The notes under the pieces were generated by a model, which had not been told where the DNA came from, made no database searches, and saw only the letters and a program-made list of their open reading frames with translations. DNA of 40,911 nucleotides from assembly GCA_031127095.1 (NCBI GenBank), contig JARIEX010000014.1, forward strand, positions 1 to 40,911. The letters are read 5' to 3'. A program made the position numbers and the translations under genes. Below, in pieces: positions 3,680 to 25,470 of the stretch. Position 1 is the first letter of the stretch, and the number at the start of each line of letters is the position of its first letter. This stretch comes from Gemmatimonadota bacterium (GTDB lineage: Bacteria > Gemmatimonadota > Gemmatimonadetes > Gemmatimonadales > Gemmatimonadaceae).

Positions 3680-3758
3680 ATACAGCCGATGCTTCAGTTG
3701 TGAGATGCTTTCCGGTCTGCATCCGATCGCACCCGTGAGCAACGGGCGGCGTGTCGGC

Positions 3759-4403
3759 CTAGCGCACCAGCGGCGCGATGATGTCTGCGAAGGCGGTCCG
3801 TGCCCGGTTGAGTCGCGACTTGACCGTACCCAGGTTCACGCCGGTGATCTCGGCGATCTCCTCGTACGACTTCCCTTCGAGTTCGCGCAACACGAACACC
3901 TCACGATGATGCGCCGGCAACTGCCCCACGGACTGCTCGACCATCTCCCGCAGGTGGCGCTTGCGGAACATGTCGTCCGGACGCGTATGCGTGTCTTCGA
4001 ACTGCAACGGCCGGTCCTCGTCCTCGAACTTGGCCTTGATCGTCTGGAACAGCACCAGCGGATTGCGGGAGCGGTTGCGCAGCTCGTTCTTCGCCAGGTT
4101 CGACGCGATCGTGTAGATCCACGTCGAGAACTTCTTGGAGCGATCAAAACGGCCGATGTGGCGGTACACCCGGATGAAGACCTCTTGCACAAGGTCTTCC
4201 GCCCGGTCCCGATCACCGATCGTGCGGTAGATGAAGTTCAGCAGCCGACCCTGATACCGGTCGACGAGCTCTTCGAAGGCACGTTCCTCGCCGCCGAGGA
4301 ACGCCGACACCACATCACCATCCTCGAGCGTGCGCAGGTGCTCGCGCACCGACACGGCAGGGGTACTCTGTGAGGTCAGTTTCGTGCGAGCCAGCTCGGC
4401 CAT
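3759..4403 (-). CDS. RNA polymerase sigma factor, ECF (sigma-70 family, RpoE-like)
   Basis: 214-residue sigma factor with only regions 2 and 4. Region 2 spans about residues 40-110 (FEELVDRYQ..., DRAEDLVQEVFIRVYRHI, FSTWIYTIASNLAKNELR) and binds core polymerase and the -10 element. Region 4 spans about 158-205 (QLPAHHREVFVLRELEGKSYEEIA, then GTVKSRLNRAR), the -35 helix-turn-helix. The longer frame reaches 4454, but the ATG at 4403 has a strong GGAGGAGG ribosome site nine bases upstream, so I start there. A zinc-finger anti-sigma gene follows downstream. The role is presumably an envelope or stress response; the regulon cannot be read from this window. Confidence 0.92.
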   Translation of the reverse strand: MAELARTKLTSQSTPAVSVREHLRTLEDGDVVSAFLGGEERAFEELVDRYQGRLLNFIYRTIGDRDRAEDLVQEVFIRVYRHIGRFDRSKKFSTWIYTIASNLAKNELRNRSRNPLVLFQTIKAKFEDEDRPLQFEDTHTRPDDMFRKRHLREMVEQSVGQLPAHHREVFVLRELEGKSYEEIAEITGVNLGTVKSRLNRARTAFADIIAPLVR

Positions 4404-4412
4404 GGATCGAGT

Positions 4413-4420
4413 CCTCCTCC
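4413..4420 (-). promoter_or_regulatory. Strong ribosome binding site of the sigma factor gene
   Basis: The bottom strand reads GGAGGAGG, nine bases before the ATG at 4403. It decides the start of the sigma gene, and it is unusually strong for this window, where most genes have weak or coupled initiation. Confidence 0.75.
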
Positions 4421-4667
4421 AGCGGTGACGCGAGTCGGCAGACTCACGGGGCACCGACCAGACCGCCGGACGATCCGGACAACCATGTCAGTGCACACCA
4501 GGAGTAGGTGCATAGTGCGTGCCGCTGGGACCTTTTCGGAACAAATCAATCTAACACATTGATATACAACGGCTTACAACGATCCCACGAACATCACACG
4601 ACACACGCCGCCGTCTCATTCCGACTCGATTGTCCCGAATTGAGGACAATCGAAGAGGACAGATCTG
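4421..4667. other. Intergenic region upstream of the sigma factor, relatively AT-rich
   Basis: No gene is seen here. The stretch 4535-4580 is markedly AT-rich against the GC-rich background and lies upstream of the sigma gene, so its promoter is probably here. On the bottom strand a TTGTAA hexamer lies 17 bp before TGTTAG, which is a weak housekeeping-type match. A GTTCC followed by AAAAGGTC is also visible but I could not pair it with a convincing ECF -10 element. A 12-bp perfect palindrome, GACAGATCTGTC, at 4658-4669 overlaps the stop codon of the Nudix gene. Confidence 0.4.
4627..4652 (-). terminator. Perfect 9-bp hairpin after the Nudix gene, possible terminator
   Basis: CGATTGTCC and GGACAATCG form a perfect 9-bp stem with an 8-nt loop, beginning 15 bases after the Nudix stop codon. 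No T-run follows on the bottom strand, so it is not a canonical intrinsic terminator. It could also be an operator for the sigma gene. Confidence 0.45.
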
Positions 4668-5216
4668 TCAGTTGAGCCGGAATCCGGCCGTGTAGAGCAG
4701 CGCGAGCGCCGTCTTGGCATCCTGAATCTCACCTTGCTCGATCATGGACAGCGCCCGTGACAGCTTGGTTGGGGCCAGCTCCATGAACTCGTCCGCTTCC
4801 CGTTTCGCCTCGCCGGCCACGAGTCCGGTGGCCACGAACAAATGGATCTTCTCGTCGGTAAAGCCCGGGGTCGTGAACATCGTGAACAGATGCTCCACGC
4901 GGGCGGCGGTGTATCCGGTTTCCTCCGCCAGTTCACGATGGGCACAGGCCAGCGGGGCCTCACCGGGATCGAGACGACCGGCCGGGATCTCGTACAGGTA
5001 CCCCTCGGCGGCGTAGCGGTACTGCCGAATCAGCAGGACCTCTGGGTCATCGTCGAGGTCGCCCAGGAGCGGCACCACGGCGCTCGCCCCCGGGTGACGT
5101 ACCATCTCGAGCTCCCCCGTCGACCCATCAGGAAAGCGCACCGTGTCGAGGTCGATCGAGATCACGCGCCCGGTGTAGCCGCGCGTCCCGCTAATCTTGC
5201 CGGGGCCGTCGCTCAT
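4668..5216 (-). CDS. Nudix hydrolase, probable ADP-ribose pyrophosphatase
   Basis: 182-residue Nudix enzyme. The Nudix box is intact at residues 80-102: G80, five residues, E86, seven residues, then R94-E95-L96-x-E98-E99-x-G101. Upstream, VLLIRQYRYAAEGYLYEIPAG matches the ADP-ribose/NDP-sugar pyrophosphatase subgroup, as does the following FTMFTTPGFTDEKIHLFVA. The expected reaction is hydrolysis of ADP-ribose to AMP and ribose 5-phosphate in the cytoplasm. The ATG overlaps the TGA of the SET-domain gene by four bases, so the two are likely co-translated. Exact substrate specificity is inference. Confidence 0.88.
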   Translation of the reverse strand: MSDGPGKISGTRGYTGRVISIDLDTVRFPDGSTGELEMVRHPGASAVVPLLGDLDDDPEVLLIRQYRYAAEGYLYEIPAGRLDPGEAPLACAHRELAEETGYTAARVEHLFTMFTTPGFTDEKIHLFVATGLVAGEAKREADEFMELAPTKLSRALSMIEQGEIQDAKTALALLYTAGFRLN

Positions 5217-5884
5217 CGGGGCTGCTTGGCCGGCGCCTTCTTACTGGCCGCCTTTTTGAGGGATGCCTTCTTCGCGCCGGGCTTCACCCCTTTCTTCGGC
5301 TTTTTGGGCAGGGGCACATCGTTGCCGGCCAGCCACTGCTTGATCGTCGGACGCAGATACACCGGAATCCGCAGGATCGTCCCGCGGCACTTCGCCGTGC
5401 CGCAGCGACAGGCGTAGTAGCGCACGTCCTCCGGCTCGTACTCGTCCTGCCACTCGAAGCGGTAATCGTAGGCGAGCTCCGTTTCCGGCGTGATCGCCTT
5501 GATCGCCTTGATCCAGATGTGACCGTCCTCGATCTCGGTCTCGCAGTTCGGATCGCACGAGTGATTGATGAAGCGCGCATCGTTCCCGCCGTAGCGCGCG
5601 TCGAGCACGGTGTCATCATCGAGCACGAACAGGAACGTGTGGTGCCGGCCCTCGTTGTCGTCGTACCGACGATCGGCTTCCTCGTGCGTGATCGGCTGCC
5701 CCCAGTACTCGTCGATCTTCTTGCCCTTGCGGATCGGCAGCAGCGCGAAGGCGCCGCGCCCCTGGATTTTCGAGCGGCGCACCTCGTAGTACGGCGACTT
5801 CGGCGGCTTTACGCGCTTCGGAGCCTTCGGCACGGCAGGCGTCTTCACGGCAGGCGTCTTCACAGACTTCTTGGCTGGCGACAC
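5213..5884 (-). CDS. SET-domain protein lysine methyltransferase-like, with lysine-rich tails
   Basis: 223 residues. The SET domain runs from about 32 to 145: GRGAF at 42-46, NHSCDPN at 107-113 (S-adenosylmethionine/active-site motif) and AYDYRF at 138-143. A post-SET-type cysteine cluster C159-x-C161-x4-C166 follows and, with the Cys of NHSC, could bind zinc. Both ends are low-complexity and basic: residues 1-30 contain PAVKTPAVPKAPKR, and residues 190-223 are a run of KKxxKK, PAKK and KKAA motifs like histone H1-type tails. The likely reaction is lysine methylation of a protein. Such genes are scattered in bacteria and are best known from chlamydiae. The GTG at 5884 lies six bases after the M16 stop. 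The real target is unknown; the gene's own tails are plausible substrates. Confidence 0.87.
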   Translation of the reverse strand: MSPAKKSVKTPAVKTPAVPKAPKRVKPPKSPYYEVRRSKIQGRGAFALLPIRKGKKIDEYWGQPITHEEADRRYDDNEGRHHTFLFVLDDDTVLDARYGGNDARFINHSCDPNCETEIEDGHIWIKAIKAITPETELAYDYRFEWQDEYEPEDVRYYACRCGTAKCRGTILRIPVYLRPTIKQWLAGNDVPLPKKPKKGVKPGAKKASLKKAASKKAPAKQPR

Positions 5885-5890
5885 GTCGAT

Positions 5891-7327
5891 TCAGGAGGAT
5901 GAGGAGGAAGACACGGGCACGACAGCGACATCGTCGTCTGCCGGGTCGTATACGATGACGGGTCCGAGGTGCAGCGCCTCGACCGATGCACGGATCGCAC
6001 TGGCATCACCCACCACCACGACTTGCAACCGGCTCGGATCGAGGTGCGTCTGCGCCACCCGCAACACGTCCTGCGCGGTGACGGCCTTCACCCGGTCGCG
6101 GTACGTGTCGAAGTAGTTCGTAGGCAGGCGGAAGATCTCCACGTTCGCGAGGCCACCCGCCACCTCGGCGGTGGTCTCGAACCGGATCGGAAAGACCCCC
6201 ACGAGATAGCTCGTGGCCAGTGACAGCTCGGCCTCAGACACCGGGGCCTCGCGGATGCGCGTGAATTCCAGCGCGATCTCGCGCAGGGCATCGGCGGTCA
6301 CCACCGTTTCCACGGCCGTGGAGATCTCGAACGGACTCGCCGCGCGGCGCCAGTCGAACGCCGAGTGCGCGCCGTAGGTGTACGCATGCACTTCGCGCAG
6401 ATTCAGATTGAGCCGCGACGAAAACAGTCCGCCCAGAATCGCGTTCATCACCACCACGGGGAAGTAGTCCTCGTGCAGGCGCGGAATCGCCACGTGGCCC
6501 ACGCGCACTTCCGACTGCGACGCGTCCGGCTTGTGCACCAGATGCACGCGCGGCTCTGCATAGCGCTGCGCATCGAGCGGTTCCGTGACCGGCGGCGCGT
6601 TACCGGTCCAGTCACCGAAGTGCGTGCTCGCCAGTTTCACGGCGCGCTCCACATCGATGTCACCCACGATCATCAACGCCGTCGCGTCGGGACGATAGAA
6701 CTCGGCGTGATACGCCTCCACGCGCTCGCGGGTGAGTCGCATGATGCTCGCTTCGTCACCACCGGCCAATCGCGCGAAGCGCGACGCTTTCTGATACAGC
6801 AGGCGCGAGAAGAACACGTCCGACAGCCCGCGCGGTTCGGCCCGCAGTTGCGCGAGATCGGCCAGACGCTCGCCGCGCATGCGCTCCAGCTCCGACTCCG
6901 GAAAGGCGGGATGGCGCAGCACTTCCGACAGCACCGCCACGGCATCGTCGATCCGGCTGGACAACGCCGTGATCTGCACGATCGCCGAGTCCCAGTCGGC
7001 GCCGGTGTCGAGCGTCGTGCCCAGCATCTCGAGACGCGACGTGAGCTCGAGCGCGTTCATGTCACGCGTCCCTTCTGCCAACGCCCGCGTGGTGAGCTGC
7101 GCGAGCCCTTCGTAGTCGCGCGGATCGCGCGTGGCGCCCGCCTCGACAACGGCCAGCGTGGTCACCACCGGATACGCCGGCACCGAGGCCACGATCACCC
7201 GCAGGCCGTTGGCCAGAATGCGCGTCGCGAAGTGCGGAAACCGGTAGTCGCTCGGCGTGCCGGCGACGGGGCGCGGCGGCGCGGGCGGGGTCTCGGTCAT
7301 GGCGACGGTGGAGAGTGAATCGGTCAC
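5891..7327 (-). CDS. M16 family peptidase homologue lacking the zinc motif (regulatory partner)
   Basis: 478 residues with the overall M16 (pitrilysin/processing-peptidase) fold. It has an N-terminal FATRILANGLRVIVASVPAYPVVTTLAVVEAG strand region and a C-terminal half containing SEVRVGHVAIPR and a long DVLRVAQTHLDPSRLQVVVVGD. Where active members have HxxEH it reads LAQLTTRAL, so zinc ligands and the catalytic Glu are missing. Such inactive subunits pair with an active M16 subunit, and one is encoded immediately upstream. The C-terminus ends in an Asp/Val then poly-Ser run. The GTG at 7327 overlaps the upstream TGA (GTGA). An ATG ten codons later is the alternative start. There is no signal peptide, so a cytoplasmic location is likely. 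Confidence 0.88.
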   Translation of the reverse strand: MTDSLSTVAMTETPPAPPRPVAGTPSDYRFPHFATRILANGLRVIVASVPAYPVVTTLAVVEAGATRDPRDYEGLAQLTTRALAEGTRDMNALELTSRLEMLGTTLDTGADWDSAIVQITALSSRIDDAVAVLSEVLRHPAFPESELERMRGERLADLAQLRAEPRGLSDVFFSRLLYQKASRFARLAGGDEASIMRLTRERVEAYHAEFYRPDATALMIVGDIDVERAVKLASTHFGDWTGNAPPVTEPLDAQRYAEPRVHLVHKPDASQSEVRVGHVAIPRLHEDYFPVVVMNAILGGLFSSRLNLNLREVHAYTYGAHSAFDWRRAASPFEISTAVETVVTADALREIALEFTRIREAPVSEAELSLATSYLVGVFPIRFETTAEVAGGLANVEIFRLPTNYFDTYRDRVKAVTAQDVLRVAQTHLDPSRLQVVVVGDASAIRASVEALHLGPVIVYDPADDDVAVVPVSSSSSS

Positions 7328-15410: not shown

Positions 15411-15512
15411 CTCGCGTCTCGTTCGGCGAATTGCGCTCGTGTGTCACGCTCTCATGGCGGCGGCGCACGAGGTCATGCACGATCGCGCCGGCCCCCCGTG
15501 CCCGGGTCGTTG

Positions 15513-16469
15513 ATGTTGATCAATCTGGTTCCAGATTTTCTCGCCGTACTCGAAGCCGACGATCGCGTGTCGGCATATCTGGCGTACTTCGAGCGCCACA
15601 AGGCATTGCTCACGGCATACTGGGAGAACTACGTCCTCGAGCCGTCAGGGCCGCACTTCGACGAGGTCGTCCGCGCCACGGTCGAGGCCTCCCGCGATGA
15701 TCTCCGCACCTTGCTCGCGCGCACCGATGTCATGGCGCTCGCGCGGCAGGCCGAAGAGAAGGTGCGTGTACTCCTCGACGTGGATGTCAGCTACGACATC
15801 GTCATCATGGTGGGCGTCGGTGCCGCCAATGCCGGTGAACTGGTCGTCAACGGCCGCGGGGTCGCGTTCGTCTGTCTGGAGCACTTCACCGGCGTCGCCA
15901 ACCCTGAAACGCAGGGACTTGGCCTCGACCCCGAACTCATTCCGCTCTGGCTCGCCCACGAGATCACACACGTGGTGCGTTACACCTCGCCCAGTAGCCG
16001 CAGCGACATGCGCGGGTTCGTCGAGGACGCCGGTGGCTACTACTCGTACTGGGAAACCGGACGTCAGGCCTCGCTCCGCGAGTTGCTGGTCAACGAGGGG
16101 CTCGCCGTCCACGTGTCGCGGGCGGTCAGCCCGGGCCACGCCGTCTGGGAGTACTTCGGGTTTGCCCGCAAGCAGTACGCCCGCATCCGCGAGATCGAGC
16201 CGGTACTGGCCCGCGCCGCCGACGCCGACGGTGACCGGTCCGCCCTGGGGTTGCGACTGCGCTACCTGTCCGGGGGCATGAGCGACGAAGCACGAACGAT
16301 AGAGCGCACGGTGCTTCCCGAGCGGGCGGGCTATTTCCTCGGCGCCCGCCTCGTGGAAGCCGCCATCGCCGCGCGCGGGTACGGGTGGGCGGTACGCGCC
16401 AGCGTGCATGAATTGGCCTCGGTCAACGACACCTTCGTGGAGCGGCCGCGGCTCACGATCGTCAGCTGA
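15513..16469 (+). CDS. Predicted zinc protease (DUF2268-like)
   Basis: 318 residues. A central HEITH motif (H149, E150, H153) in PLWLAHEITHVVRYTS and a downstream LRELLVNEGLAVHVSRAV, where NEGLA would supply the third ligand, follow the gluzincin-like pattern of DUF2268 proteins. The N-terminus (MLINLVPDFLAVLEADDRVSAYLAYFERHK) lacks a signal peptide, so it is probably cytoplasmic. The long frame begins at 15441, but the ATG at 15513 is the first in a good context. Its stop lies 36 bp before the palindromic repeat array. Substrate is unknown, and assignment to DUF2268 is by motif only. Confidence 0.7.
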   Translation: MLINLVPDFLAVLEADDRVSAYLAYFERHKALLTAYWENYVLEPSGPHFDEVVRATVEASRDDLRTLLARTDVMALARQAEEKVRVLLDVDVSYDIVIMVGVGAANAGELVVNGRGVAFVCLEHFTGVANPETQGLGLDPELIPLWLAHEITHVVRYTSPSSRSDMRGFVEDAGGYYSYWETGRQASLRELLVNEGLAVHVSRAVSPGHAVWEYFGFARKQYARIREIEPVLARAADADGDRSALGLRLRYLSGGMSDEARTIERTVLPERAGYFLGARLVEAAIAARGYGWAVRASVHELASVNDTFVERPRLTIVS

Positions 16470-16505
16470 TGCTCGATCAGACCGCTTGCGAACAGCAACG
16501 GCAAC

Positions 16506-16615
16506 AGCTGGAACACGGAGACCACCGATCACACCGAAACTGCCACGGATAAGCAAACAGCGCTTTTCGCTTATCTGTGTTGTTTCCGTCGATCGGTAAA
16601 ATCCGTGTTCTGGCT
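16506..16615. repeat. Palindromic repeat unit 1 (110 bp)
   Basis: Imperfect palindrome. The left arm starts AGCTGGAACACGGA and the right arm ends TCCGTGTTCTGGCT. The centre pairs GATAAGC with GCTTATC around a 13-14 nt loop. This copy has two substitutions relative to the others (ACCACCGATC and AACTGCC). Confidence 0.9.
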
Positions 16616-16641
16616 GTTGCAGTGGCTGTGGCAACAGCAAC

Positions 16642-16751
16642 AGCTGGAACACGGAGACCACGGATCACACCGAAACCGCCACGGATAAGCAAACAGCGCG
16701 GTTCGCTTATCTGTGTTGTTTCCGTCGATCGGTAAAATCCGTGTTCTGGCT
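16642..16751. repeat. Palindromic repeat unit 2 (110 bp)
   Basis: Second copy, 136 bp after unit 1. The 26-bp spacer before it is GTTGCAGTGGCT followed by GTGGCAACAGCAAC. The loop differs at two bases (GCGCGGTTC instead of GCGCTTTTC). Confidence 0.9.
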
Positions 16752-16777
16752 GTTGCAGTGGCTGTGGCAACAGCAAC

Positions 16778-16887
16778 AGCTGGAACACGGAGACCACGGA
16801 TCACACCGAAACCGCCGCGGATAAGCAAACAGCGCTTTTCGCTTATCTGTGTTGTTTCCGTCGATCGGTAAAATCCGTGTTCTGGCT
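16778..16887. repeat. Palindromic repeat unit 3 (110 bp)
   Basis: Third copy, again 136 bp after the previous one and with an identical 26-bp spacer. It has one difference in the left arm (GCCGCGG for GCCACGG). Confidence 0.9.
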
Positions 16888-16943
16888 GTTGCAGTGGCTG
16901 TTTCGGTAACTGTTGTAATGGCCGTGGCTGTGGCAACAGCAAC

Positions 16944-17053
16944 AGCTGGAACACGGAGACCACGGATCACACCGAAACCGCCACGGATAAGCAAACAGCG
17001 CTTTTCGCTTATCTGTGTTGTTTCCGTCGATCGGTAAAATCCGTGTTCTGGCT
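16944..17053. repeat. Palindromic repeat unit 4 (110 bp)
   Basis: Fourth copy, 166 bp after unit 3 because the intervening spacer is 56 bp, exactly five hexamers longer than the other spacers. Confidence 0.9.
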
Positions 17054-17113
17054 GTTGCAGTGGCTGTGGCAGTAGCTGTTGCAGTAGCTGTTGTAATGGC
17101 AGTGGCTGTGGCG
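17054..17113. repeat. Degenerate hexamer minisatellite GTNGCN
   Basis: Twenty consecutive triplets alternate mostly GTN and GCN (GTT GCA GTG GCT GTG GCA and so on). The same pattern fills 16616-16641, 16752-16777 and 16888-16943 between the palindromes. It ends four bases before the mnmE stop codon. Frames through it look like poly-Val-Ala or poly-Thr-Ala, but I do not regard them as genes. Confidence 0.8.
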
Positions 17114-17117
17114 GATC

Positions 17118-18491
17118 CTATTTTCCGATGCAGAAGTCCCGGAATACCCGGTCGAGCACGTCCTCGGTCTCCACGATCCCAATGAGATCCGAGAGCGCCT
17201 CCCGGGCCGCATAGAGGTGCACCGCCGCCACCGGCGCCGGCAGTGCCCCGTGCTCCCACACCATCAGAAACTCGGTGAGGTCGTCGTGCGCCGCCGTGAG
17301 TCCGACACGGTGCCGTTCGCGCGTCACGAGTACGTCATCACCCATCGGAAGTGCCGCCGCATCGGCCACCGCATCGGCCGCCGCCGCGCGATCAATCGCG
17401 TCCAGCAGCGCCCCCAAGCCGTGGCCCGTCTCGGCGCTCACCCCTAGCTCCGGCCCGGGTAACGCCGCCGGCGCCAGATCCGTTTTCGTGCGCACCCGAA
17501 TGACCGTCCCCGTCGTGTGGTGCGTGAGGGCCTGGCAGGTGGCCGCGATATCATCAGCGCCGGTGCCGCACGCCAGCACGACCCGTGCCTGCCCCAGATA
17601 GCGCCGACTCACCTCGATGCCGAGTCGTTCGATCTCGTCGTCGGTATCGCGGAGGCCGGCCGTGTCCACGAAGCGCAGGGGCAGCGGTGCGCGGTCCAGC
17701 ACGGCTTCGATAGCATCACGGGTCGTTCCCGCAATCGGCGTTACCAGCGCGCGCGATTCACCCAGCAGCGCATTGAACAGCGACGATTTCCCGGCATTCG
17801 GAGGCCCCGCAATCACCACCAGCACCCCGTCGCGCAGCACCGCAGCTCGTGGCGCCGTGTGCAGGAGCGCGCGGAGCGCGTCGCGCAGCGACTCCGCCGC
17901 CTGTTTGATCCGGGTGGGCGCGATCGGGCCGTCGTCTTCCTCGGGGAAGTCGATGTCGTAGGCGATCAGCGCTTCGAGATGGATCACGTCCTCGCGCAAT
18001 GCCAGCAGCCGTCGCGATAAGCCGCCATCGAGCTGGGACAGCGCCTGGCGGTGCATGGCCGTGGTGCGTGCATCGATCAGGTCAGCCACCGCTTCGGCTT
18101 GCACGAGATCCAGCCGACCGTTCAACACGGCGCGCCGGGTAAACTCGCCCGGCGTCGCGGGACGGGCCCCGGCGGCCACACACGCGGCCAGCACCAGCGA
18201 CGGCGCCACCTGGCCGCCGTGCGTGGAGATTTCGACCACGTCGTCTCCGGTGTACGAACGCGGTGCCGCAAAGCAGGTCACCAGCGTGTCGTCGAGCGAC
18301 GTCCCGTCGGGATGCCGCAACGCCACGCGGGTGGCACGACGCGGCTGCAGGTCAGATGCGCCAAGGGCGCGAGCGATCTCGATCGCCCGCGCCCCTGACA
18401 GCCGAATTACGGCAATCGCCCCGCGTCCAGCAGCCGTGACAAGGGCAACGATCGTGTCGTCGCCACCAGGCAGCTGGCGGGCCGTCACCAC
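17118..18491 (-). CDS. mnmE: tRNA uridine-5-carboxymethylaminomethyl modification GTPase MnmE
   Basis: About 457 residues. With MnmG it modifies the wobble uridine of certain tRNAs. The N-terminal formyl-THF domain begins DDTIVALVTAAGRGAIAVIRLSG. A central helical domain contains HGG, FTRRAVLNGRLDLVQAEAVADLI. The G domain has GPPNAGKS (about 229-236), TTRD (256-259) and DTAG (276-279), and the C-terminus ends in the conserved FCIGK. Start choice is open. GTG codons at 18491 and 18488 follow a GGGGA motif at suitable spacing and fall about 8 residues before DTIVA. A TTG at 18509 would overlap yidC by 14 bases. It is the last gene of the rpmH-rnpA-yidD-yidC-mnmE cluster. Confidence 0.93.
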   Translation of the reverse strand: MVTARQLPGGDDTIVALVTAAGRGAIAVIRLSGARAIEIARALGASDLQPRRATRVALRHPDGTSLDDTLVTCFAAPRSYTGDDVVEISTHGGQVAPSLVLAACVAAGARPATPGEFTRRAVLNGRLDLVQAEAVADLIDARTTAMHRQALSQLDGGLSRRLLALREDVIHLEALIAYDIDFPEEDDGPIAPTRIKQAAESLRDALRALLHTAPRAAVLRDGVLVVIAGPPNAGKSSLFNALLGESRALVTPIAGTTRDAIEAVLDRAPLPLRFVDTAGLRDTDDEIERLGIEVSRRYLGQARVVLACGTGADDIAATCQALTHHTTGTVIRVRTKTDLAPAALPGPELGVSAETGHGLGALLDAIDRAAAADAVADAAALPMGDDVLVTRERHRVGLTAAHDDLTEFLMVWEHGALPAPVAAVHLYAAREALSDLIGIVETEDVLDRVFRDFCIGK

Positions 18492-18495
18492 GTCA

Positions 18496-20202
18496 TTATC
18501 CCCGCACAACCGGTGGTTGCACCTTGGTGCGCTCCTGCGAGATCAACCACTGCTGCGGCAACGACGCGAGGTTCTGCACGAAGTAGTACAGGTTGAGCCC
18601 CGACGCCATGTTGAAGAAAATCACCATCATCATGGCTGGCATCAGGTACATCATCATCTTCTGCTGCTCGTTCGCCTTCATGCCACGCATGCCGATGTAC
18701 GACAGCCCCATGGCGGTGATGGCCACGAGAATCGGGATCACGTAGAACGGATCCTTGAGCGAGATGTCGGGGAACCACAGGAACGACACGCCGCGGAACT
18801 CGATCGTATTCTGGAACACGAAGAAGAGCGCAAAGAACACCGGCAGCGGGATGAGCATGGGGAGACACCCCGACAGGGAGCTGAACGGCGACATGCCATG
18901 CTCCTTGTACACCCGCATCATTTCCGACTGGAGCTTGGTCGGATCGCCCTTGTACTTGGTCTGGATTTCCTGCAGGTACGGCTGGATACGCTGCATTTGC
19001 ATCGAGCTGCGCATCGCCTTCTGATTGAGCGGCCACAAAATGATGCGCACCGCCACACCGAACAGCACCAGAATCCAGCCGTACGACAAGCCCAGCGTCA
19101 CCTTCATCCACAGCAGCGCGCGAATGACCAGCGTGGCAAACGGCTGCACGATGCCTTGGAGCCAGCCACCGTAGGGATTGGACGTCTCGAACGCGCGACC
19201 CATCGCCACGAGGCGCTTGAACTCCTGCGGCCCGGCGTACACCTCGAAGGCCACCGTGCCGCTCTTCAGTGACGCCACGATCGTGGCCTGCCCACGGGTG
19301 GCCGCTTTCGCGACCCGCTCACCGCCGGTGAAGTTGATTTCGGTGAAACCCGCCTCACCCGCCGGCGCCAGCACACCCAGCAGGAAATACTTGTTTTTCG
19401 CCACCGCCCAGTTGATCGGTCCCGCTTCGATCTGACGTTCCCCGGGATCGAGCGACCCGAAGGTCACACCATCGGCGTTCTGCTGATCGGGTTTGAACGC
19501 GTACGCGAGATGCGACTGATCCTCGGTGGTATCGGCCTCGGAGGAGCGGAAACCGGGCGGCATGTCGATCAGCAGGAAGCTGTTCTCCGGTGCGCCTTCC
19601 ACCGTGGCCGACACGTTCACGCGGTAGCTGTCGGGGAGGAACGAATACGCGATCGTGATCGCGCGGGCGCCCACCGTCGCGTCATAGCGCACCACCGCGC
19701 GTCCGTTGTCTTCGGTGCGCGTGGTCGTGAACGTCTGTGTATTGAGCGCGACGGTGTCACCCGGCGTCACGAGACGGAAGCTCAGCAACCGATCACCAGG
19801 CTTGGTCAATTCCACCGGACCACCCCTGGTACGCCCCTTGTTCGACAACGCGAGATACTGCTGCATCTCGGCACCGATCAGCGACGCGCCACGATTGGTG
19901 GTGCGGAAGACCGCCGGTGCGGTGGTGACCACCGCGGTGTCGATCGGCAACGCCAGCGATGGGGCCGAGAGAGCCGCGGAATCACCAGCCGGCACCGCGC
20001 CCATGCTGGGCTGCGCCGCGCGGGCACCATCGGCGACGACGGGGTTGCTGCTGGCCACCGTCGCCGAATCAGCGCGGCGGAGGGAGTCGGTCGCGATCGC
20101 GGGGTTCACGGGCGCCACCTTCGGCGCCGGGAACAGGATCGAGTTCAGAATCAGGACCGCCGCCATCAGGACGACGGCGAGGACGATGCGGCGTGGTTCC
20201 AT
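18496..20202 (-). CDS. yidC: Membrane protein insertase YidC
   Basis: 568 residues. The N-terminal signal-anchor helix (about 4-23, RIVLAVVLMAAVLILNSILF) is followed by an Ala/Thr-rich linker and a large periplasmic domain (about 90-330). The conserved five-helix insertase core comes next, at about 345-555: GWLQGIVQPFATLVIRALLWM, YGWILVLFGVAVRIILWPLNQKAMRS with the functionally important Arg, KYKGDPTKLQSEMMRVYKEHG, PMLIPLPVFFALFFVFQNTIE and LYYFVQNLASLPQQW. It inserts and folds inner-membrane proteins with or without SecYEG. The periplasmic domain makes this the Gram-negative type, supporting a diderm host. The ATG at 20202 lies 19 bp after yidD. The stop overlaps an out-of-frame ATG by one base. 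Confidence 0.95.
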   Translation of the reverse strand: MEPRRIVLAVVLMAAVLILNSILFPAPKVAPVNPAIATDSLRRADSATVASSNPVVADGARAAQPSMGAVPAGDSAALSAPSLALPIDTAVVTTAPAVFRTTNRGASLIGAEMQQYLALSNKGRTRGGPVELTKPGDRLLSFRLVTPGDTVALNTQTFTTTRTEDNGRAVVRYDATVGARAITIAYSFLPDSYRVNVSATVEGAPENSFLLIDMPPGFRSSEADTTEDQSHLAYAFKPDQQNADGVTFGSLDPGERQIEAGPINWAVAKNKYFLLGVLAPAGEAGFTEINFTGGERVAKAATRGQATIVASLKSGTVAFEVYAGPQEFKRLVAMGRAFETSNPYGGWLQGIVQPFATLVIRALLWMKVTLGLSYGWILVLFGVAVRIILWPLNQKAMRSSMQMQRIQPYLQEIQTKYKGDPTKLQSEMMRVYKEHGMSPFSSLSGCLPMLIPLPVFFALFFVFQNTIEFRGVSFLWFPDISLKDPFYVIPILVAITAMGLSYIGMRGMKANEQQKMMMYLMPAMMMVIFFNMASGLNLYYFVQNLASLPQQWLISQERTKVQPPVVRG

Positions 20203-20221
20203 GGTCTGTATAAGGGAGCGC

Positions 20222-20431
20222 TCAGGGCACCGGATCGAATCCGCCGGGCCGGAACGGATGACAGCGCCCGATGCGGCGCAAAGCCATCCATCCGCCGCGC
20301 AGCGCGCCGTGACGCTGGAGCGCCTCGATCGCGTACGCGGAACAGGAAGGATAATAGCGGCAGGCGCCCCCAAAGATGGGCGACAGCGTGAGCTGGTACC
20401 CGCGCACCAGCAGGATGAACAGGTTCGCCAT
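20222..20431 (-). CDS. yidD: Membrane protein insertion efficiency factor YidD
   Basis: 69 residues. Family signatures: LFILLVRGYQLTLSPIFGGACRYYPSCSAYAIEAL with C24 and C30, then GWMALRRIGRCHPFRPGGFDPVP. It helps YidC-dependent insertion at the inner face of the membrane. The frame is open further upstream to 20482, but the ATG at 20431 gives the standard length and lies just after the rnpA stop. The alternative start would overlap rnpA by about 40 bases. Confidence 0.93.
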   Translation of the reverse strand: MANLFILLVRGYQLTLSPIFGGACRYYPSCSAYAIEALQRHGALRGGWMALRRIGRCHPFRPGGFDPVP

Positions 20432-20441
20432 CACGTGATAC

Positions 20442-20777
20442 TCAGGGTCCGGACGCCGGGGGCGCACTCGCCGGAAGCGCACTCGCTATGGGCGAGCTCG
20501 CCACCGGCTCGATCTGCCGACCCACACGACGGACCGCCTGCACGACCTCGGCACGCAGCACATCGAACGTACGGTCGTACGCCACCGGCAAGACCCGCAC
20601 CACGAGGTCCATCGGCGCGAGTCCCGGCAGCACCTCGATCCGGATCACCTCGCGGAGCCGACGTTTGAGCCGGTTTCGCTCGACCCCCGAATGTTTGTAC
20701 TTTGGGATCACGAACCCCACCCGGGGAAACGCATGAAGGGAAGCCATGGCGCGCACATCCATAGAGGCCGTGCGCAC
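20442..20777 (-). CDS. rnpA: Ribonuclease P protein component (start codon unclear)
   Basis: Protein subunit of RNase P, which trims tRNA 5' leaders. The visible core is PRVGFVIPKYKHSGVERNRLKRRLREVIR, containing the conserved RNR motif, followed by DLVVRVLPVAY. The coordinates given start at a GTG (20777) and yield 111 residues. However, clear RnpA sequence continues upstream in frame (RLTRGTDLERVRHEGKRVR), so this GTG is inside the conserved N-terminus. Between that homology and the preceding in-frame stop inside rpmH there is no ATG, GTG or TTG. A CTG at 20825 is the only near-start. A rare start or a coupled mechanism is therefore likely. The C-terminal tail is Ala/Pro/Ser-rich. Confidence 0.88.
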   Translation of the reverse strand: MRTASMDVRAMASLHAFPRVGFVIPKYKHSGVERNRLKRRLREVIRIEVLPGLAPMDLVVRVLPVAYDRTFDVLRAEVVQAVRRVGRQIEPVASSPIASALPASAPPASGP

Positions 20778-20853
20778 TCGCTTCCCTTCGTGACGTACCC
20801 GCTCGAGGTCGGTCCCGCGCGTCAGTCGCTGCGCACGCGGGAACGACCGGCTA

Positions 20854-21018
20854 TCAGGCGCCGGCGTACTTCGACGGGATCTGGACGGTCAACACCTTGC
20901 GGCCCTTCCGGCGGCGACGGGCGAGAACCTCACGGCCCCACTTCGTCTCCATACGCGCACGGAAACCGTGCTTGCGGACTCGCTTGGTGTTGCGCGGACG
21001 GTATGTGGGCTTGCCCAT
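20854..21018 (-). CDS. rpmH: 50S ribosomal protein L34
   Basis: 54 residues reading [19 protein letters not shown], then [22 protein letters not shown], followed by a short [12 protein letters not shown] tail. This matches L34, with its typical TYRP and RKHGFR-RM motifs and the basic ARRRRKGRK. Most L34 proteins are about 44-50 residues, so the C-terminal extension is modest. It is the first gene of the cluster leading to mnmE and divergent from dnaA. Its stop TGA is followed at once by TAG. It is a short gene but the sequence is unmistakable. Confidence 0.97.
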
Positions 21019-21109
21019 ATCAATGCTCGAGGTAACGCGGTAGAAACTGCAAAGGAATCCAAGAAAGCCATGCGGGACGCGAGACAGACACGTTCCGTGG
21101 CAGCCTCAG

Positions 21110-21139
21110 AAAGTACTCGCACCACCGGCGTCCGGTCAA
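21110..21139 (-). promoter_or_regulatory. Possible promoter of the rpmH cluster
   Basis: The bottom strand reads TTGACC, an 18-bp spacer, then TACTTT, about 90 bp before the rpmH ATG. The -10 match is weak (3 of 6). A second TTGACG lies just upstream of it. Confidence 0.35.
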
Positions 21140-21245
21140 GGTCGTCAAGTAACCTCGGCACAACGATTTGCACCCGTACCGACCGTCATCGCAGCGACTT
21201 GCTTGCGCTCACGAATGCGGGAGTGGTGTCACGTCGATGACGCGA

Positions 21246-21273
21246 TTGACTTATCCACACGCCGGCGTAACCT
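21246..21273 (+). promoter_or_regulatory. Putative dnaA promoter containing a consensus DnaA box
   Basis: TTGACT (21246-21251) is followed after 16 bp by TAACCT (21268-21273). A perfect DnaA box TTATCCACA occupies 21251-21259, between the two hexamers and about 75 bp before the dnaA ATG. This arrangement would let DnaA repress its own promoter, as known for dnaA in several bacteria. The box is certain; the promoter hexamers are a moderate match. Confidence 0.6.
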
Positions 21274-21331
21274 TCGCCCCCCCGACCTACACGCCCGGTT
21301 GTCGGGACCGCCTGCTCTCCGACCTCCCGCC

Positions 21332-22750
21332 ATGTCCCTCACGCCTGCCGAAACCTGGGATCGCCTGCGCCAACGCGCACGTCAGATCCTCCCGGAGCAG
21401 ACGTACCGCACATGGCTCGAGCCCACCGACGCGCTCGGCATCGAGCACGACACACTCCTGATCGGCGCCCCCGATCAGTTTTCAGCCGACTGGAACGAGT
21501 CCAAGCACGCCGACCTGCTCACGAGCTTCGCCGCCGTCGCACTCGGCCACCCCATGAAGGTCCGCTTCAAAGTGGCCGAAGAGCGCATGGGGCGCGTCCA
21601 GATGGACATGTTCGTGCAGCCACCGCCAACCCCTGTTGTTGCGCCACCAACGGCACACCAACAGCGCTTGTCGGCGCCACTGAACCCGAGATACACCTTC
21701 GATCAGTTCGTCATCGGGAAGTCCAACGATGTCGCTGCCGCCGCCGCACAGGCCGCCGCACAGGCCCCCGGCAAGGTGTACAACCCGCTCTTCATCTATG
21801 GGGAGACCGGACTCGGCAAAACGCACCTCATGCAGGGCATCGCCCACGAGCTGCTCAAGCGCACCCCCACGCTGCGGCTGGCCTTCGTCGGCACCGAGCA
21901 GTTCACCAACGAGTTCGTCAACGCCATCCAGACCGGACAGATGGGCGACTTCCGTCGCCGCTTCCGCGAAATCGACCTGCTCCTGGTCGATGACGTCCAG
22001 TTCCTGAAGGGGAAAGAATCCACGCAGGAAGAATTCTTCCACACCTTCAACGCGATCTACGAAGCCGGTCGCCAAATCGTCCTCACCTCCGATCGGCCAC
22101 CCAAGGAGATCCCGGGACTCGAAGCCCGCCTGGTCTCCCGCTTCGAATGGGGAATGGTCGCCAATGTCGATGCCCCGGATCTCGAACACCGGATCGCCAT
22201 CCTCAAGAAGAAGGCGAGCCTCGATCACCTCGAACTCACCATTCCCGACGAAGTCATCGAGTTCATTGCCCAGCATGTGAAATCGTCCGTCCGGGAACTC
22301 GAAGGCTCGATCATCAAGCTCCTCGCCTACGCCTCCCTCAAGCACCGCGAGATCTCGGTCGAACTCGCACGGGAAGCGCTCCGCGACAAAATCCGGGCAT
22401 CCACCACCTCCGATTTCCCGGATATCCCACCCACCACCATCACGGTCGCCACCATCCAACAGGTGGTCTCCCGGGAGTGGGGGGTGACGCCCGACGGGCT
22501 CCGATCCAAGACGCGCACCAAGCAGCTCACCACCCCGCGTCAGATCGCCATGTACCTGTGCCGAGAGCTGTTGGCGCTGCAGTTGGTGGAAATCGGCAAC
22601 GCCTTCGGTGGGCGGGACCACTCCACGGTCATTCACTCGCTCGACCGCGTGGCGGAAGACATGGGAGGAGAACCTGGCTTTGCCGATCGCGTGCTCAAGG
22701 TTCGAGGCATGTTGGAAACCCTGCGATCCACTGGACAACTCGGCAGCTGA
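21332..22750 (+). CDS. dnaA: Chromosomal replication initiator protein DnaA
   Basis: 472 residues. Domain I (1-85: TWDRLRQRARQILPEQTYRTWLEP) is followed by a short Pro-rich linker (about 95-118). The AAA+ domain begins at NPRYTFDQFVIGKSN, with Walker A GETGLGKTH (157-165) and Walker B LLLVDDVQF (216-224), then TSDRPPKEIPGLEARLVSRFEWG. Domain IV carries the DNA-binding signature GGRDHSTVIHSL near residue 430. It binds DnaA boxes and melts oriC to start replication. The longer frame starts at 21203, but the ATG at 21332 gives the standard N-terminus. The gene is divergent from rpmH, with dnaN downstream after a 230-bp gap that may be oriC. Confidence 0.97.
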   Translation: MSLTPAETWDRLRQRARQILPEQTYRTWLEPTDALGIEHDTLLIGAPDQFSADWNESKHADLLTSFAAVALGHPMKVRFKVAEERMGRVQMDMFVQPPPTPVVAPPTAHQQRLSAPLNPRYTFDQFVIGKSNDVAAAAAQAAAQAPGKVYNPLFIYGETGLGKTHLMQGIAHELLKRTPTLRLAFVGTEQFTNEFVNAIQTGQMGDFRRRFREIDLLLVDDVQFLKGKESTQEEFFHTFNAIYEAGRQIVLTSDRPPKEIPGLEARLVSRFEWGMVANVDAPDLEHRIAILKKKASLDHLELTIPDEVIEFIAQHVKSSVRELEGSIIKLLAYASLKHREISVELAREALRDKIRASTTSDFPDIPPTTITVATIQQVVSREWGVTPDGLRSKTRTKQLTTPRQIAMYLCRELLALQLVEIGNAFGGRDHSTVIHSLDRVAEDMGGEPGFADRVLKVRGMLETLRSTGQLGS

Positions 22751-25028: not shown

Positions 25029-25050
25029 AAAAAGGACCTCACGGAAGGTC
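25029..25050 (-). terminator. Intrinsic terminator of rnpB
   Basis: The bottom strand reads GACCT, a six-base loop TCCGTG, AGGTC, then CTTTTT. This is a short stem with a T-run directly after the RNase P RNA. The 5' half of the stem is also the end of helix P1, so the two structures compete. The next gene's GTG follows the T-run immediately. Confidence 0.65.
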
Positions 25051-25470
25051 GCCGGCCTATAAGCCGGGTTCTGTCAGCGCCGGCGTGTGCAAGCACACAC
25101 CGACACCGGACGGTCATTCCTCTCGGCGTGCAGTCACCCACACGCTCCAGCAGCCTACCCGCGGCTCGACGTCTTGCGACGTCCTTGCGAGACGGGTCAT
25201 CTCTCGCCGCTTATTTGGCCTTGCTCCGACTGGGGTTTACCGAGCCACCTTCGTTACCGAAGGCGCGGTGGGCTCTTACCCCACCCTTTCACCCTTACCG
25301 CCGCCTCGGTTGCCCGAGACGACGGCGGTTTGCTTTCTGTTGCACTGTCCGTCGCACGAAGCTCACGCCGCATGCGCCCAGGCGTTACCTGGCAGTCTAC
25401 CCTGTGGAGCCCGGACTTTCCTCGGTGCCTGAGCTTTCGCTCCGGCATCGCGACCATCCGGCCGGCAACC
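25047..25470 (-). ncRNA. rnpB: RNase P RNA (bacterial type A)
   Basis: RNA subunit of RNase P, about 424 nt on the minus strand. The 5' end GGTTGCCGGCC pairs with the 3' end GGCCGGCGACC to form helix P1 with a single G-U pair. Universally conserved segments are present: GAGGAAAGTCCGGGCTCC at 25406-25423 (CR-I/P4 5' strand), AGACTGCCAGGTAACGCCTGGG after it, and near the 3' end ACAGAACCCGGCTTATAG at about 25058-25075 (P4 3' strand and CR-V). The mature ends are inferred from P1 pairing. Protein frames through this region are spurious. The gene for the protein subunit, rnpA, is only about 4.3 kb away. Confidence 0.95.

What the first reader, a model, noticed from the sequence alone, without database searches (positions are those of the whole stretch)
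16506..17113. Array of four 110-bp imperfect palindromes with GTNGCN-hexamer spacers between convergent genes
Directly seen: four near-identical units, each able to fold into one long stem (arms of about 48 and 46 bases, outer ends AGCTGGAACACGGA and TCCGTGTTCTGGCT, inner stem GATAAGC/GCTTATC). Periods are 136, 136 and 166 bp. Spacers are 26, 26 and 56 bp, so the long one has five extra hexamers. Units differ by only one to three bases, which suggests recent amplification or homogenisation. The array sits 36 bp past one gene and 64 bp before the stop of the convergent mnmE. It could be a bidirectional transcription barrier, a MITE-like or REP/BIME-like element, or a folded RNA. ACACGGA-rich intergenic repeats are known in some environmental bacteria, but I cannot say whether this one is described.
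Basis: partly seen in the sequence, partly recalled or inferred. Interest (0 to 1): 0.72.

Follow-up and report, generated by a model that had tools for sequence, protein, structure and literature searches.

The report
Hairpin repeats at Gemmatimonas gene ends
Four copies of a long hairpin-forming DNA repeat sit between two genes that run toward each other; the same repeat family lies just past the stop codons of many genes in related Gemmatimonas bacteria and may help to stop transcription there, although that has not been tested.

Summary
The array is real: four 110-bp quasi-palindromes at 16506-17053 that fold far better than shuffles. They belong to a dispersed family: 10 of 61 genomes match by BLAST, all in the window's genus; one, by exact length, is Gemmatimonas groenlandica TET16. 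Each copy is a hairpin flanked on both sides by outward T-rich (GTTGCN)n tracts. Copies lie just past stop codons: of 25 in G. groenlandica 13 are between convergent genes (background 16%), and all 10 in tandem gaps are nearer the upstream stop. At this junction 6 of 23 congeners carry intact units and the closest relative a half-deleted one; several others carry unrelated hairpins. No association with REP transposases and no canonical terminator here. Best reading: bidirectional 3'-end hairpins acting as terminators or read-through barriers (0.4). Against: no G-U over A-C excess in transcript orientation, and loss in sister species. Chief rival: REP/BIME-like repeats merely tolerated at gene ends (0.36).

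The parts
15513..16469 (+). upstream gene, DUF2268 predicted Zn-dependent protease; stop codon 36 bp before unit 1 (an earlier in-frame start at 15441 is possible)
16491..16505 (.). left (GCAACN) hexamer tract of unit 1
16506..16615 (.). unit 1, 110-bp quasi-palindrome
16616..16641 (.). spacer 1, 26 bp: right GTNGCN tract plus left GCAACN tract of the next unit
16642..16751 (.). unit 2
16752..16777 (.). spacer 2, 26 bp, identical to spacer 1
16778..16887 (.). unit 3
16888..16943 (.). spacer 3, 56 bp, 30 bp longer than the others
16944..17053 (.). unit 4
17054..17113 (.). right GTNGCN tract, degenerate
17118..18509 (-). convergent gene mnmE; its stop lies 64 bp from unit 4

Best explanation
A family of composite 3'-end elements: a hairpin of about 100-130 bp flanked by inverted hexamer tracts, (GCAACN)n on the left and (NGTTGC)n on the right, lying just after stop codons and preferentially between convergent genes. 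Proposed mechanism: RNA polymerase leaving either gene transcribes a long imperfect stem followed by a U-rich, A-poor tract of GUUGCN repeats, pauses and is released or slowed, so that transcripts from the two sides do not run through each other. Being symmetric, the element can serve both strands; tandem units would make a stronger barrier. Shown by sequence: anatomy, family, placement, two-strand symmetry, differing unit number at one junction. Inferred: every functional step.
For: Placement after stop codons: 13 of 25 convergent in G029 (background 53 of 334 pairs; Fisher P 8e-5), 10 of 10 tandem ones nearer the upstream stop; over 65 elements from 10 genomes 33 of 36 tandem ones nearer the stop, 30 of 36 within 60 nt. 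T 42% and A 6% in the first 12 nt outside the hairpin, both sides, against 19% and 20% in intergenic DNA. Strong folds on both strands. At the same junction other congeners without the family but with gaps of 85 bp or more mostly carry other well-folding sequences: G013, G005, G004, G010, G028, G003 with z -9.4 to -2.5. None of 13 convergent gaps with an element holds a compact terminator outside it, against 9 of 51 without (not significant, P 0.18).
Against: No canonical U-tract: the terminator scan finds 0 in 16300-17300 (shuffles 1.0). In transcript orientation G-U (80) does not exceed A-C (72) mispairs over 36 tandem elements (P 0.57), so selection on the transcribed RNA stem is not seen. 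Half-deleted in G026, a remnant in G027, absent in G011, so not essential. The remnant gap of G027 (89 bp) does not fold (z -0.5) and junctions of 16-78 bp without any strong hairpin also exist. No expression data.
Confidence: 0.4

Rival explanations
1. REP/BIME-like dispersed repeats without a needed host function: they spread or convert between sites and persist mainly where they do no harm, after stop codons and away from promoters. Palindromy is kept by DNA-level processes such as whole-copy conversion or template-switch correction.
For: No RNA-strand asymmetry. Orthologous-site copies (43 pairs, median identity 0.809) are hardly closer than other pairs (623, median 0.796). By eye the arm layout differs between species at four shared sites (A, B, I, K), at B between G000 and G026 whose loci are about 95% identical. 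Decay in sister species.
Against: Copies abut the stop codon rather than lying anywhere in the tandem gap (mean relative position 0.25; 0 of 10000 uniform draws as low). Other hairpins of unrelated sequence occupy the same junction. No mobilising enzyme identified.
Confidence: 0.36
2. mRNA 3'-end protector or processing site: the hairpin blocks 3' exonucleases or is cut by RNase III, setting transcript stability rather than termination.
For: Position just after stop codons and a very stable fold.
Against: No excess of G-U over A-C in transcript orientation; convergent preference is not required by this reading.
Confidence: 0.1
3. Double-stranded binding platform for a nucleoid or other protein that reads the CACNGA motifs, about four per arm.
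For: CACNGA-like motifs recur about every 9 bp along each arm; the inner GATA and outer ends are the most conserved columns (the outer ten bases are fixed by how the set was chosen).
Against: The arms covary more than shuffled columns (0.139 against 0.072, 0 of 500), which motif binding alone does not require, though relatedness inflates this. A 9-bp period does not keep helical phase.
Confidence: 0.08

Closest known systems
REP / BIME elements with RAYT transposases
   Same: Dispersed intergenic palindromes, singly or in arrays. REPs are described as 20-40 bp (PMC3733652) and usually over 100 copies per genome (PMC2817692), both from abstracts in the listing; transcription attenuation by BIMEs is a cited title.
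   Different: Unit of about 110 bp, no GTAG-type tag at the ends, hexamer tracts outside, tens of copies, and no association with PF01797.
MITEs
   Same: About 100-130 bp, inverted ends, tens of copies, intergenic.
   Different: No autonomous partner seen in the complete genome G029; target-site duplication not tested.
Bidirectional intrinsic terminators
   Same: Symmetric hairpin at 3' ends, enriched between convergent genes, T-rich tract downstream on both strands (A-rich upstream tracts mark bidirectional terminators: PMC12207403, passages seen).
   Different: Stem far longer, and a GC-interrupted GUUGCN tract instead of a U-tract.
Hairpin terminators without a U-tract ('I-shaped') and hairpin clusters
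   Same: Strong hairpins after the stop codon with no canonical U-tract (I-shaped: recalled and listing only; clusters: PMC8355165, abstract and passages).
   Different: Those clusters are of short hairpins with stems of 2-10 bp; here one very long stem per unit, repeated as a sequence family.

Membership tests
REP/BIME | RAYT (PF01797) transposase in the genome | tested here: not met
   Absent in 7 of 10 element-bearing genomes including the complete G029; present in 3 of 10 of them and in 5 of 16 congeners without BLAST-level elements.
REP/BIME | short palindrome (20-40 bp) with a GTAG-type tag at one end | tested here: not met
   Units of 105-125 bp whose ends read AGCNRGAACACGGA; no GTAG tag at the ends, by eye.
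REP/BIME | intergenic, dispersed, often in arrays | tested here: met
MITE | autonomous relative with the same ends and a transposase | tested here: not met
   51 end matches in G029: apart from nine places each has an opposite end close by; seven of the nine were printed and two are known elements with a degenerate end. The only ORF seen between ends is 214 aa without a Pfam match. Ends that differ from the 13-mer would be missed.
MITE | target-site duplication or clean empty site | not tested
   No clean empty site was found; the gap of G011 is short and different.
canonical intrinsic terminator | GC-rich compact hairpin followed directly by a U-tract | tested here: not met
   0 found in 16300-17300; tract averages 42% T.
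bidirectional terminator (as a function) | transcripts end at the element on both strands | not testable with these tools
   needs RNA 3'-end data
structured RNA families of Rfam 15 | match to a covariance model at gathering score | tested here: not met
   only RNase P in the whole window

The most novel reading that the evidence does not exclude
Gemmatimonas closes many convergent gene pairs with interchangeable, very long bidirectional hairpins: palindromes of unrelated sequence, built from degenerate 6-9-bp repeats, replace one another at the same junction, whole copies are exchanged between junctions, and a GUUGCN tract stands in for the U-tract. Shape, not sequence, would be what is kept.
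Probability: 0.25. Interest if true: 0.62.

Novelty: new variant of a known kind. Interest (0 to 1): 0.42.

Why it matters
No study of transcription ends in Gemmatimonadota turned up in the searches. A family with a defined anatomy, present in a cultured type strain, makes it directly testable whether very long hairpins with degenerate tails terminate transcription in both directions, and how palindromes turn over at gene ends. Copies that differ in layout at shared sites may record conversion between dispersed repeats.

Tried and rejected
RAYT-driven REP: no association with PF01797. MITE with a partner IS: not found with the 13-mer ends. Known RNA: no Rfam match. DNA uptake signal: ACACGGAT occurs 39 times in 600 kb of G029 against 12.6 expected, 27 of them in gaps; too rare, by what I recall of uptake sequences. 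attC-like integron site: considered because of long imperfect palindromes in arrays; core motifs recalled and compared by eye only, no fit, no search made. Coding array: ORFs run through it mechanically, not pursued as genes. Selection on the RNA strand: tested, not seen. Complementary use with compact terminators: 0 of 13 convergent gaps with an element against 9 of 51 without, not significant; in tandem gaps 1 of 10 against 15 of 215. Literature: six sequence strings gave 0 papers; searches listed no paper whose title or abstract start describes these repeats; nothing outside the held library was searched.

Limits of the sets: alignment A1 holds 46 of 49 distinct units, chosen by exact outer 10-mers, with three of the four window units left out. 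The 65-element set is 67 rows taken minus 2 duplicates; rows under about 60 bits, the long-loop arrays and the distant relatives were left out. The 25 G029 elements include three weak or split matches. Gene calls come from a simple codon-usage script of mine, so the two divergent cases may be miscalls. Several G029 regions were chosen because they held known hits, so densities are not estimated. Sites shared between species were taken from an output that was cut. The phylum scan drew 395 genomes and scored at most 9 candidates in each, so its counts are lower bounds. In one search one measure, pairs with a change on both sides, was only 8 against 6.2 in shuffles (32 of 500).

Full report
1. 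Observation. Units lie at 16506-16615, 16642-16751, 16778-16887 and 16944-17053, with spacers of 26, 26 and 56 bp; they differ by 1-4 bases. Single units fold at -49 to -54 kcal/mol (z -5.7 to -7.9), the whole gap at -341 (z -22 with 20 shuffles; -14 with 30 others). The neighbours are a DUF2268 protease gene (+) and mnmE (-); yidC, rnpA and dnaA follow.

2. A family. In the own genome (3.5 Mb, 229 contigs, 83% complete) BLAST with unit 2 gives 60 matches, both strands and arrays counted. Of 61 genomes (own plus 60 relatives) 10 have matches, all among the 30 of the window's genus. A pattern for both outer ends finds 8 to 23 units in 6 of 8 chosen genomes, 0 in the other two, and 0 with the reversed pattern in all eight. 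One carrier, G029, is a single contig of 5,179,092 bp, the size printed for Gemmatimonas groenlandica TET16 (PMC7844134, passages seen). A covariance model from 46 units matches 37 of 395 genomes of the phylum at E up to 1e-4: 35 in the same family, 18 of these in the genus, 1 elsewhere in the order and 1 elsewhere in the class (lower bounds). The 14 distant loci printed are also hairpins, most with CACGGA-like or CACAGA-like units along the arms, by eye.

3. Anatomy. Ends AGCNRGAACACGGA, about four CACNGA-like motifs per arm roughly 9 bp apart, and an inner stem around CACNGATAAGC. On 46 units 95.5% of the cells of the consensus structure are paired (shuffled 91.7%) and covariation is 0.139 against 0.072 (0 of 500 shuffles), while the number of pairs with two-sided change is only 8 against 6.2. 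Relatedness and the choice of exact ends inflate such numbers. Outside the hairpin, read outward on either side, stands (GTTGCN)n: over 65 elements the first 12 nt have 42% T and 6% A, against 19% and 20% in G029 intergenic DNA. Nine of 299 gaps of 40 bp or more in 600 kb of G029 hold GTTGC-N-GTTGC; all nine hold the element, by eye.

4. Placement. In G029, 25 elements: 13 convergent, 10 tandem, 2 divergent. Of 334 gene pairs in a 400-kb stretch 53 are convergent (Fisher P 8e-5); by gap length the expected convergent share is 17% (P 8e-5). All 10 tandem elements are nearer the upstream stop than the next start. Over 65 elements of 10 genomes: 36 tandem, 24 convergent, 2 divergent, 3 at contig edges; 33 of 36 tandem ones nearer the stop, 30 of 36 within 60 nt of it.

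5. The same junction in other species. The protease-mnmE junction was read in 23 genomes of the genus, in G014 from two contigs. The model finds 4 units in G000, 2 in G014, 1 each in G015, G023, G024 and G029, a half-deleted one in G026 (protease 97.7% identical, the closest read here), G004 only at E 0.53, and nothing in the rest; G027 keeps a remnant by eye. Folding of the junctions without a unit: G013 z -9.4, G005 -8.7, G004 -7.9, G010 -5.8, G028 -3.6, G003 -2.5, but G027 (89 bp) -0.5; of seven gaps of 21-78 bp none reaches -3, and two of 16 and 18 bp were too short to test. The four-unit array is therefore most simply a local amplification, though loss from larger arrays elsewhere cannot be excluded.

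6. Turnover. Many element sites are shared between species. Yet orthologous-site copies (13 sites, 43 pairs, median identity 0.809) are hardly closer than other pairs (623, median 0.796). G000 and G026 share loci A and B at about 95% while the elements there are 79% and 74% alike. By eye the arm layout itself differs at four shared sites: B in G000, A and I in G029, and K between G024 and G015, with both arms of the odd copy matching each other. At A between G000 and G026 the layout is the same, so that case is fast divergence rather than replacement. I read the four layout changes as replacement of whole copies; covariation then need not mean stepwise compensation. Within genomes the most alike copies reach 0.91, so there is no sign of very recent spread among the 65.

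7. Mechanism. I favour a bidirectional 3'-end hairpin that ends or slows transcription (0.4). For: placement, two-strand symmetry, T-rich tracts, other hairpins at the same junction. Against: no canonical terminator, no excess of G-U (80) over A-C (72) in transcript orientation (P 0.57), decay in sister species. The tolerated REP/BIME-like repeat is nearly as likely (0.36). In 600 kb of G029 strong stems (score 40 or more) occur in 8 of 41 convergent, 2 of 65 divergent and 9 of 159 tandem gaps of 50-600 bp, and without gaps flagged as element-like in 3 of 34, 1 of 64 and 6 of 151; mean shuffled scores never reach 40. This hints at a wider class of such hairpins, in a small sample.

8. Known kinds. 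It fails the tested REP features (RAYT, tag, size) and no MITE partner was seen; it is not a canonical terminator. If it works, it works like a bidirectional terminator or an attenuating BIME. The searches of the held library (listings, and passages of four papers) showed no description of it.

Noticed in passing
L037 (G000:C110 about 3700-5400), L038 (G000:C161 about 5990-7250), L035 (G000:C204 about 1-510): Tandem arrays of long-loop relatives of the element, periods about 255 and 188 bp, also next to stop codons.
   Followed up: partly
L204 (G029 3914990-3916760): Array of long-loop units with an ORF of 214 aa (no Pfam match) lying between two arms; possibly cargo, possibly chance.
   Followed up: partly
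G029 convergent gaps at 3458668, 3658625, 3595518, 3452512, 3674216: Other long inverted repeats of unrelated sequence, some built of degenerate short repeats such as CTTTTTCTC or GATACGAAC, in convergent gaps.
   Followed up: no
L107 (G013), L112 (G005), L117 (G010), protease-mnmE junction: Unrelated hairpin-forming sequences in the same junction of congeners.
   Followed up: partly
L044 (G000:C82) 1655-1693: A 39-bp miniature copy that keeps only the outer ends as a short hairpin.
   Followed up: no
window 17118-22750: mnmE, yidC, rnpA and dnaA lie in a row beside the array, so it is probably near the replication origin; the origin was not tested.
   Followed up: no
window 25044-25469 (-): Bacterial RNase P RNA, class A.
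   Followed up: no
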